Part shown: positions 35,514-37,603 of the stretch, piece by piece
How the letters are laid out: every line of letters begins with the position of its first letter
How positions within the stretch are numbered: position 1 is the stretch's first letter
DNA from: Utricularia gibba
Taxonomy: Eukaryota; Streptophyta; Magnoliopsida; Lamiales; Lentibulariaceae
Assembly (NCBI GenBank): GCA_002189035.1
Contig: CM007989.1
Location: 7,421,501 to 7,485,500 of the forward strand
Length of the DNA stretch: 64,000 nucleotides
Direction of reading: 5' to 3'
Translations under genes and position numbers: made by a program
Notes under the pieces: generated by a model
Database searches by the model: none
Told to the model about the DNA's origin: nothing
What the model saw: the letters and a program-made list of their open reading frames with translations, nothing else

Positions 35514-37603
35514 TTATGCTGCTGCCTTCTGCTTCTTTGGCATGCGATACCCGCCAACAACACAGGCATGATCCCTCTCAAATGGTTCGAGGGTAACCTG
35601 CTCAGATGGCTTGAACTGATCTGCCTGCAACTTTTTCACTTCCTGAGCAAACACGGCCTCGGCAGGTACCGTGGAGTCAATGCAGTTGGCCTGTGGATTT
35701 CAATAGGGATAACATGAACACAATGAATTCAAGCATCATTAAAGGGAAACGCGGTAAAGTTGATTCCAGTTTATTTAGCTTTAGATGGCAGCCACTGGAA
35801 TGTGTAAAAAAAAAAAGGAATAAGCTCCTCTGCAGACCTTAATTGATATAACAAAGTGGCCTCCAGCTTTCAAGAAGTAGGAGGCGTTCAGCGCTAGGAT
35901 TCTTGCCTGAAAATGCACAAGAGTTAAGAAGCCAAAAAGAATTAAGATAAATGGTAAAAAAACAACAATGCAGTTAACTTCAGCACATTTGCGGGAACAT
36001 AAAAAAAATATGGGATTTGCGTGAATAACCCCAACAAAAAAATGGAAGAGTGCATCAGAAACTCGGTGTTGCATCACCCATTATGTCTAGAAGGGGAATC
36101 CGAGTAACTCATCGCCTGCGCATCCATATGAACACAACATCTGAAGCCATTACAGATTAGGCAAAAAAAGATTCACCCCTTCAAGCAAACTAGCGAAGGG
36201 ATGATAAAACCAATGAGAAGTAAAAAAAAAAAATTGAGTGCATCAGAAACTCGGGGTTGCATCACCCATGGCGTCTAGAAGGGGAATCCGAGCAAATCAT
36301 CATCTGCTGCTTAATATCGAGAGAATGTGTGCAAAGATAGCAGAAAACAAGAAAATAAGAGCACGATTTGTAAAAAGAATCTGAGTGGTAAAAAAGGGCA
36401 AAGATTTGTTTACACCAAATACGAGGATATCTGAAACATTGAAGGAATGGAAAATGTAGGTATTAAAGCAATACGAAAGGAAAAAACGCCAACTATGTAA
36501 CAACTTGCAGCAGCATACGTCAAAGAGGGAATCACACCTGATCGGGCTGAGCAACATCAGAGAATATAACATCTACCATCCCAACAAGCATTCTGTATTT
36601 TCCAGGATGTCTAGCATCTTCAATGATTGGAATTACATTAGTTCGCTTCTTTGCCATGTTAACTAAGTCTCTACCGCTTCTATGCGAGAATTCAACTGCG
36701 TAGACCACTCCCTCCTGAAAGCATTAACCAATAAATTTGAATAAACAAGTTAAACAGCGTAAGAATTAACTCCATACAAGAACATATGCAGACTTACAGG
36801 GCCAACAACATCAGATACATGTGAAACTGTGGTTCCCGATGCAGCACCAAGGTAGAGAACTTTCGCTCCAGGTTTCTAAACCAAATTATGATAAATGCAT
36901 GGTAGGAGTTGGAATCCAGGTAAAAGAAAATTTGATGACACGTGACAAAGCGAGAAAAGGGTGCACTTACAATCCACACATTATCAACTCCACCAAGGAT
37001 TGCGGCAGCCAGCTTCGAACGGAAAGGATTCCATACACGATACTCTGTTTTGGTCCCGTCTTCGTTCTAGGAAGACCCAAAAACAAGCAGCATTCAGTAC
37101 TAACAGAAAAAGCACATAACTTTCAGTAAATCATAAAACTAACCTGAACAGAAATTCTCTTTTCGTTATAGACTGCTTCTCCGGGAACAAGGTTTTTGGT
37201 ACATAAAGCATCCTCCTTTCCCTTTGCGATAAACACGCCCTCATGTCTATGCGGTTCTACCACCACCTTACTTCCACCCTTCATTCCACCACCCCTTCCA
37301 CCTCTCCCACCTCTTCCAGCTCCTCTTCCGCCTCCTCTTCCACCTCCTCTTCCACCACCTCTCTTCATATCACTCCCTCCAAAGCCTCCGCTTCTACCAC
37401 CAAATCCTCTTCCACCGCTTCTCCCCCGCTTCTACCCCCTCCATCTCCTCTCCCCCCTCTAAACCCGCCGCCGCCACCACGACCTACAAAATGAAAAAAA
37501 AAAAAAAAACATGTTATAGAAGCCATACGACACTGAAAAGACTTCCTTCTTATTCTAAAAACAAACTAAACTCCAGACCTCTGGTTGGTGTTCTTGCAAC
37601 CAT
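35514..37603 (-). CDS. FIB: Fibrillarin, box C/D snoRNP 2'-O-methyltransferase, with one frameshift
   Basis: Nucleolar SAM-dependent enzyme that methylates rRNA under box C/D snoRNA guidance. Exons on the minus strand: 37579-37603 (25-nt first exon, MVARTPTR), 37144-37483, 36971-37066, 36798-36875, 36538-36714, 35838-35906 and 35514-35690. The N terminus is the Gly/Arg-rich GAR domain. The methyltransferase core has [65 protein letters not shown] and [14 protein letters not shown]. The exons sum to 962 nt, one short of a multiple of three. The frame changes at the C5 run 37423-37427 inside the GAR domain; one extra base would give 320 residues. Intron 5 carries two U60-type snoRNAs. Confidence 0.93.
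36048..36121 (-). ncRNA. snoU60: U60-like box C/D snoRNA, copy B (degenerate C box)
   Basis: Lies in fibrillarin intron 5, same strand. D box CTGA at 36055-36058 (minus strand). The expected C box at 36109-36115 reads GCGATGA instead of RTGATGA. The guide CGGATTCCCCTT is intact and identical to copy A. The internal GGTGATG (C'-like) is kept. The second guide-like stretch differs by one base (AACACCGAG). It is about 190 bp downstream of copy A and appears to be a tandem duplicate, perhaps weakly processed. Confidence 0.75.
36236..36310 (-). ncRNA. snoU60: U60-like box C/D snoRNA, copy A
   Basis: Lies in fibrillarin intron 5, same strand as the host. C box ATGATGA at 36297-36303 and D box CTGA at 36243-36246, with a short GCA/TGC terminal pairing. 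An internal GGTGATG resembles C'. The guide CGGATTCCCCTT ahead of a D'-like CTAGA is complementary over 12 nt to the conserved 25S/28S rRNA segment AAGGGGAATCCG (rRNA recalled from memory). Arabidopsis fibrillarin genes are known to host U60 in intron 5, which matches the position here. Expected role: 2'-O-methylation of a G in 25S rRNA by the fibrillarin snoRNP. Confidence 0.88.
37423..37427 (-). other. 1-nt frameshift in fibrillarin GAR domain (C5/G5 run)
   Basis: Read on the minus strand, GGGRSGG before the run and [13 protein letters not shown] after it are in different frames, each typical of the GAR domain. A G6 run would restore continuity. As written, the first frame ends in a stop before the methyltransferase core. 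Confidence 0.8.

What the first reader, a model, noticed from the sequence alone, without database searches (positions are those of the whole stretch)
36048..36310. Two tandem U60-type box C/D snoRNAs inside fibrillarin intron 5
Fibrillarin methylates rRNA using box C/D snoRNAs, and its own fifth intron carries two. Both copies contain the guide CGGATTCCCCTT (12-nt match to conserved 25S rRNA), a D box and an internal C'-like box. Intronic U60 in fibrillarin is known from Arabidopsis; two copies in one intron is less expected. It hints at linked dosage of enzyme and guide.
Basis: partly seen in the sequence, partly recalled or inferred. Interest (0 to 1): 0.72.

Follow-up and report, generated by a model that had tools for sequence, protein, structure and literature searches.

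The report
Duplicate U60 snoRNAs in fibrillarin intron
A plant gene for the rRNA-methylating enzyme fibrillarin carries, in its fifth intron, two near-duplicate copies of the known guide RNA U60; a single U60 in a fibrillarin intron is already known from Arabidopsis, so the new points are the doubling and the finding that this genome's second fibrillarin gene, with its own U60, has decayed.

Summary
Two Rfam snoR60/U60 box C/D snoRNAs (75.5 and 73.4 bits, cut-off 40) lie on the minus strand at 36051-36121 and 36239-36309. Both are inside intron 5 (631 nt) of a seven-exon fibrillarin gene. Both keep the same 13-nt guide (UCGGAUUCCCCUU), D', C' and D boxes. The guide is placed to direct 2'-O-methylation of the 25S G that corresponds to Arabidopsis G2125. 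The arrangement is a known kind (U60.1F/U60.2F in Arabidopsis FIB1/FIB2). What is added here is the doubling within one intron, and its genomic context. This is the only fibrillarin gene found in the 100-Mb genome. Its whole-genome-duplication partner survives as a wreck (exons 3-5 gone) that holds a third, degenerate U60 without a D box. The two intact copies differ at 10 of 71 positions, mostly in spacers, and their flanks no longer align. That suggests selection on both, although the downstream copy has a non-consensus box C (GCGAUGA). Dosage linkage is plausible, since losing U60.1F lowers G2125 methylation in Arabidopsis, but it is untested here. I could not test expression, the species' own 25S rRNA, or how common the doubling is in related plants.

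The parts
36239..36309 (-). snoR60/U60 copy B (upstream in the intron). Box C 36303-36297 AUGAUGA; guide 36291-36279 UCGGAUUCCCCUU; D' 36278-36275 CUAG; C' 36265-36259 GUGAUGC; D 36246-36243 CUGA
   Evidence: Rfam RF00339, 73.4 bits; box positions
36051..36121 (-). snoR60/U60 copy A (downstream in the intron). Box C 36115-36109 GCGAUGA (non-consensus at its second base); guide 36103-36091 UCGGAUUCCCCUU; D' 36090-36087 CUAG; C' 36077-36071 GUGAUGC; D 36058-36055 CUGA
   Evidence: Rfam RF00339, 75.5 bits; box positions
35907..36537 (-). Fibrillarin intron 5 (631 nt; GTGTGA...TTTTCAG); the other five introns are 77-147 nt
35514..37603 (-). Fibrillarin gene, coding exons 37603-37579, 37483-37144, 37066-36971, 36875-36798, 36714-36538, 35906-35838, 35690-35514; one-base frameshift in the G-run at about 37423-37427 of exon 2 as assembled
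   Evidence: Pfam PF01269 exon hits, exon model, human fibrillarin match E 2.9e-127

Best explanation
These are two paralogous U60 (snoR60) box C/D guide RNAs, expressed from the fifth intron of the genome's only fibrillarin gene found. After splicing and debranching, exonucleases (and in plants possibly endonucleases) trim the intron down to the two snoRNP-protected RNAs. The D'-associated guide pairs with 13 nt of 25S rRNA (AAGGGGAAUCCGA) and directs fibrillarin to the G five nucleotides from D', the third G of AAGGGG, equivalent to Arabidopsis G2125. The second copy arose by a local duplication, and both copies were kept by selection. The whole-genome-duplication partner of this gene has decayed together with its U60. 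Shown: family identity, location, boxes, decay of the partner locus, and a pattern of differences consistent with constraint. Inferred: expression, target in this species, and the benefit of two copies (dose).
For: Full-length Rfam matches for both copies, with no other RNA family within E 1. Host verified as fibrillarin, intron 5 of a 7-exon gene. Guide, D', C' and D are identical in both copies; 8 of 10 differences fall in the 30 spacer positions and 2 in the 41 element positions (Fisher p 0.014), while flanks do not align better than shuffles. In Arabidopsis, U60.1F/U60.2F lie in FIB1/FIB2 introns, target 25S G2125, and fib1-1 loses U60.1F with lowered G2125 methylation (PMC8053127). Partner locus C255:3205895-3205972 holds a 42.8-bit U60 relic without a D box, between remnants of exons 2 and 6, in a block collinear with window 10-61 kb.
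Against: No small-RNA evidence. Copy A has a non-consensus box C (GCGAUGA; second base U to C, at the kink-turn bulge), so it could be weak. An intact own 25S rRNA with the site was not found in the searchable assembly. The gene as assembled has a frameshift in exon 2. The constraint test rests on only 10 differences and on element borders that I chose.
Confidence: 0.88

Rival explanations
1. Only the upstream copy B is a working U60; the downstream copy A is a decaying duplicate whose box C has lost its consensus U, and it matters little.
For: Box C of A is GCGAUGA against AUGAUGA in B and in the Rfam consensus. Such bulge positions matter for 15.5K binding (established knowledge, not tested here).
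Against: A scores slightly higher than B against the family model (75.5 v 73.4 bits). Everything else in A is intact. In an oocyte assay, bulge length changes in the terminal kink-turn were tolerated when the internal C'/D' kink-turn was intact (PMC6770171), although the C' here (GUGAUGC) is not full consensus.
Confidence: 0.25
2. The doubling compensates for the loss of the second fibrillarin/U60 locus, holding two U60 genes per genome as in Arabidopsis.
For: Only one fibrillarin gene found by two methods; the homeologous locus has lost exons 3-5 and its U60 has no D box. Asterids average two fibrillarins (PMC7608942). U60 copy loss goes with lower methylation in Arabidopsis.
Against: The order of duplication and loss is not resolved: A/B flanks are unalignable, so the doubling may predate the whole-genome duplication, or may have copied the snoRNA alone. 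Only weak flank similarity places the relic opposite copy A (20-30 nt, p 0.0035-0.01; not significant at 60 nt). Vitis keeps one fibrillarin, so loss needs no compensation in general.
Confidence: 0.2
3. The intronic snoRNAs act in cis as a sensor of box C/D protein supply and change splicing of fibrillarin, as SNORD86 does in NOP56.
For: A box C/D protein gene hosting C/D snoRNAs is the same logic as NOP56/SNORD86 (PMC11028025). Intron 5 holds another acceptor-like TTTCAG at 36436-36431, upstream of copy B.
Against: U60 has a real rRNA target, unlike the orphan SNORD86; no splicing data; the acceptor-like site may be chance.
Confidence: 0.05

Closest known systems
Arabidopsis U60.1F and U60.2F in FIB1 and FIB2 introns (Barneche 2000; PMC8053127)
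   Same: Same snoRNA family and fibrillarin host gene; same guide family and target region (25S G2125)
   Different: Arabidopsis has two fibrillarin genes with one U60 each; here one gene has two U60s in one intron and the second gene is a relic
Rfam RF00339 snoR60
   Same: Both copies match the whole 72-position model, well over the cut-off
   Different: Box C of copy A departs from the consensus at its second base
SNORD86 in NOP56 (animals)
   Same: Box C/D snoRNA inside a gene for a box C/D snoRNP protein
   Different: SNORD86 is an orphan and acts in cis; U60 has an rRNA guide

Membership tests
snoR60/U60 (RF00339) | Full-length match to the covariance model above the gathering score | tested here: met
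   75.5 and 73.4 bits against 40, model positions 1-72
snoR60/U60 (RF00339) | Guide complementary to 25S at AAGGGGAAUCCG | tested here: inconclusive
   The 13-nt guide is identical in both copies. The target AAGGGGAAUCCGA is the conserved 25S sequence by general knowledge, and U60 targets G2125 in Arabidopsis. An intact own 25S copy with this site was not found in the searchable assembly
box C/D snoRNA | Box C RUGAUGA in copy B | tested here: met
   AUGAUGA
box C/D snoRNA | Box C RUGAUGA in copy A | tested here: not met
   GCGAUGA, one mismatch at the U; the family score stays well above cut-off, so copy A is filed by its family match, with its activity left open
box C/D snoRNA | Box D CUGA and a terminal stem | tested here: met
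   CUGA in both; a 3-bp stem GCA/UGC next to the boxes in both
box C/D snoRNA | Stable RNA of about 70-75 nt in a snoRNP with fibrillarin | not testable with these tools
   No RNA data
fibrillarin-hosted U60 | Located in an intron of a fibrillarin gene | tested here: met
   Intron 5, 36537-35907; host matches human fibrillarin at E 2.9e-127

The most novel reading that the evidence does not exclude
After one of two fibrillarin genes decayed, the surviving gene kept or gained a second U60 in the same intron. This would be a case where a guide RNA is kept at constant dose by duplication inside the gene of its own enzyme.
Probability: 0.2. Interest if true: 0.45.

Novelty: new member of a known kind. 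Interest (0 to 1): 0.3.

Why it matters
U60 in a fibrillarin intron ties production of a methylation guide to production of the methyltransferase. A compact genome with one fibrillarin gene, two U60s and a relic of the second locus is a natural test of whether guide dose is selected. If the dose idea fails, this is an ordinary snoRNA duplication.

Tried and rejected
Assembly duplication: rejected, since the copies differ at 10/71 positions and have unrelated flanks. Other RNA families at the site: none within E 1. A second fibrillarin gene elsewhere: none by Pfam model or by the exon 5 protein. Further U60 copies: only the relic on C255 (a DNA search found only the two). Own 25S rRNA: exact patterns found no intact copy. 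The 13-nt motif occurs outside U60 loci at three places, one of them (C346) in sequence that by eye resembles a divergent 25S; Rfam did not recognise it. The 5.8S search found nothing and the LSU search failed. Dating the A/B duplication relative to the genome duplication from flanks: inconclusive. Single-strand folding is no better than shuffles, as expected for C/D snoRNAs. Literature searches found no report of two U60s in one fibrillarin intron, but the library is partial.

Full report
Check of the observation. An Rfam scan of the whole window gives exactly two hits above cut-off, both snoR60 (RF00339), on the minus strand at 36051-36121 (75.5 bits, E 8.5e-15) and 36239-36309 (73.4 bits, E 3.4e-14), each covering the model from 1 to 72. 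A permissive scan of the intron finds no other family within E 1.

Host gene. Exons on the minus strand are 37603-37579, 37483-37144, 37066-36971, 36875-36798, 36714-36538, 35906-35838 and 35690-35514, all with GT...AG introns. The snoRNAs lie in intron 5 (631 nt; the other introns are 77-147 nt), 228 nt from the donor, 117 nt apart and 144 nt from the acceptor. The joined exons, taken from after the frameshift to the stop, match human fibrillarin at E 2.9e-127 over 250 residues. The joined coding sequence is off by one base in a G-run of the glycine/arginine-rich exon 2 (about 37423-37427). Since this is the only fibrillarin gene found, a long-read assembly error is the likelier cause (inference).

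Anatomy of the two RNAs. Both have D' CUAG directly after the guide, C' GUGAUGC, D CUGA and a 3-bp terminal stem GCA/UGC. By the rule of the fifth nucleotide upstream of D', the target is the third G of AAGGGG. This fits the Arabidopsis U60 site 25S G2125, with A2127 two bases on as the snoR12 site (PMC8053127). Box C is AUGAUGA in copy B, GCGAUGA in copy A. The A copy therefore lacks the usual U in the kink-turn bulge; whether this weakens it is unknown. In one oocyte study, bulge length changes were tolerated when the internal kink-turn was intact (PMC6770171).

Chance, artefact or selection. The copies differ at 10 of 71 positions, 8 of them among the 30 spacer positions and 2 among the 41 positions of boxes, guide and stem (Fisher p 0.014). 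Their flanks do not align better than shuffles. So the pair is not an assembly duplicate, and the RNA bodies are more alike than their surroundings. That could mean selection on both or a copying event limited to the snoRNA; the spacer/element contrast favours some selection, on small numbers.

Genome context. The genome (100 Mb, 516 contigs) looks like Utricularia gibba by size (PMC10663240 gives 82-100 Mb and at least three whole-genome duplications with strong gene loss), but the species was not tested. Fibrillarin was found in one place only, by model and by protein. A third snoR60 hit lies at C255:3205895-3205972 (42.8 bits). Around it are remnants of fibrillarin exon 2 and exon 6, with exons 3-5 missing. 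It keeps the guide but has no CUGA D box. The region around it is collinear with window 10-61 kb over 40 kb in the same orientation, so this is the decayed whole-genome-duplication partner. Its upstream flank is weakly more like that of copy A (p 0.0035 at 20 nt, 0.01 at 30 nt, not significant at 60 nt). Whether the doubling came before or after the genome duplication stays open.

Mechanism and dose. In Arabidopsis, U60.1F and U60.2F lie in FIB1 and FIB2 introns. In fib1-1, U60.1F is not expressed and G2125 methylation falls, while fib2-1, which still expresses U60.2F, is unchanged at that site (PMC8053127). In that mutant fibrillarin itself is also reduced and C/D snoRNAs fall globally by 54%, so the drop is not purely a U60 dose effect. 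Here one gene with two U60s gives the same U60 gene number as Arabidopsis. That is suggestive, but not a test.

Verdict. A confirmed pair of U60 guide RNAs in a known type of host intron. The doubling and the decayed partner locus are worth a note, but the basic arrangement is already known.

Noticed in passing
window 37423-37427: One-base frameshift in a G-run of fibrillarin exon 2, in the only fibrillarin gene found; probably a long-read assembly error rather than a dead gene.
   Followed up: partly
window 10111-61139 and G000:C255:3176013-3216401: Long collinear block in the same orientation, evidence of a whole-genome duplication with heavy gene loss.
   Followed up: partly
L003 1360-2000 (C255): Fibrillarin relic in which the exon 2 donor-like GTTAGT and the exon 6 acceptor TTTTCAG survive with a U60 relic between them, so it could still be spliced as a noncoding host; not tested.
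   Followed up: partly
L019 about 1380-1800 (C346): Sequence that by eye resembles a divergent 25S rRNA around the U60 target motif; Rfam did not recognise it.
   Followed up: partly
window 36431-36436: TTTCAG acceptor-like site inside intron 5 upstream of copy B; its use would lead to an early stop codon.
   Followed up: no
window 36051-36121 and 36239-36309: CUCGG at the 5' end of the guide can pair with CCGAG just before box D within each snoRNA, so the guide may be partly self-paired.
   Followed up: no
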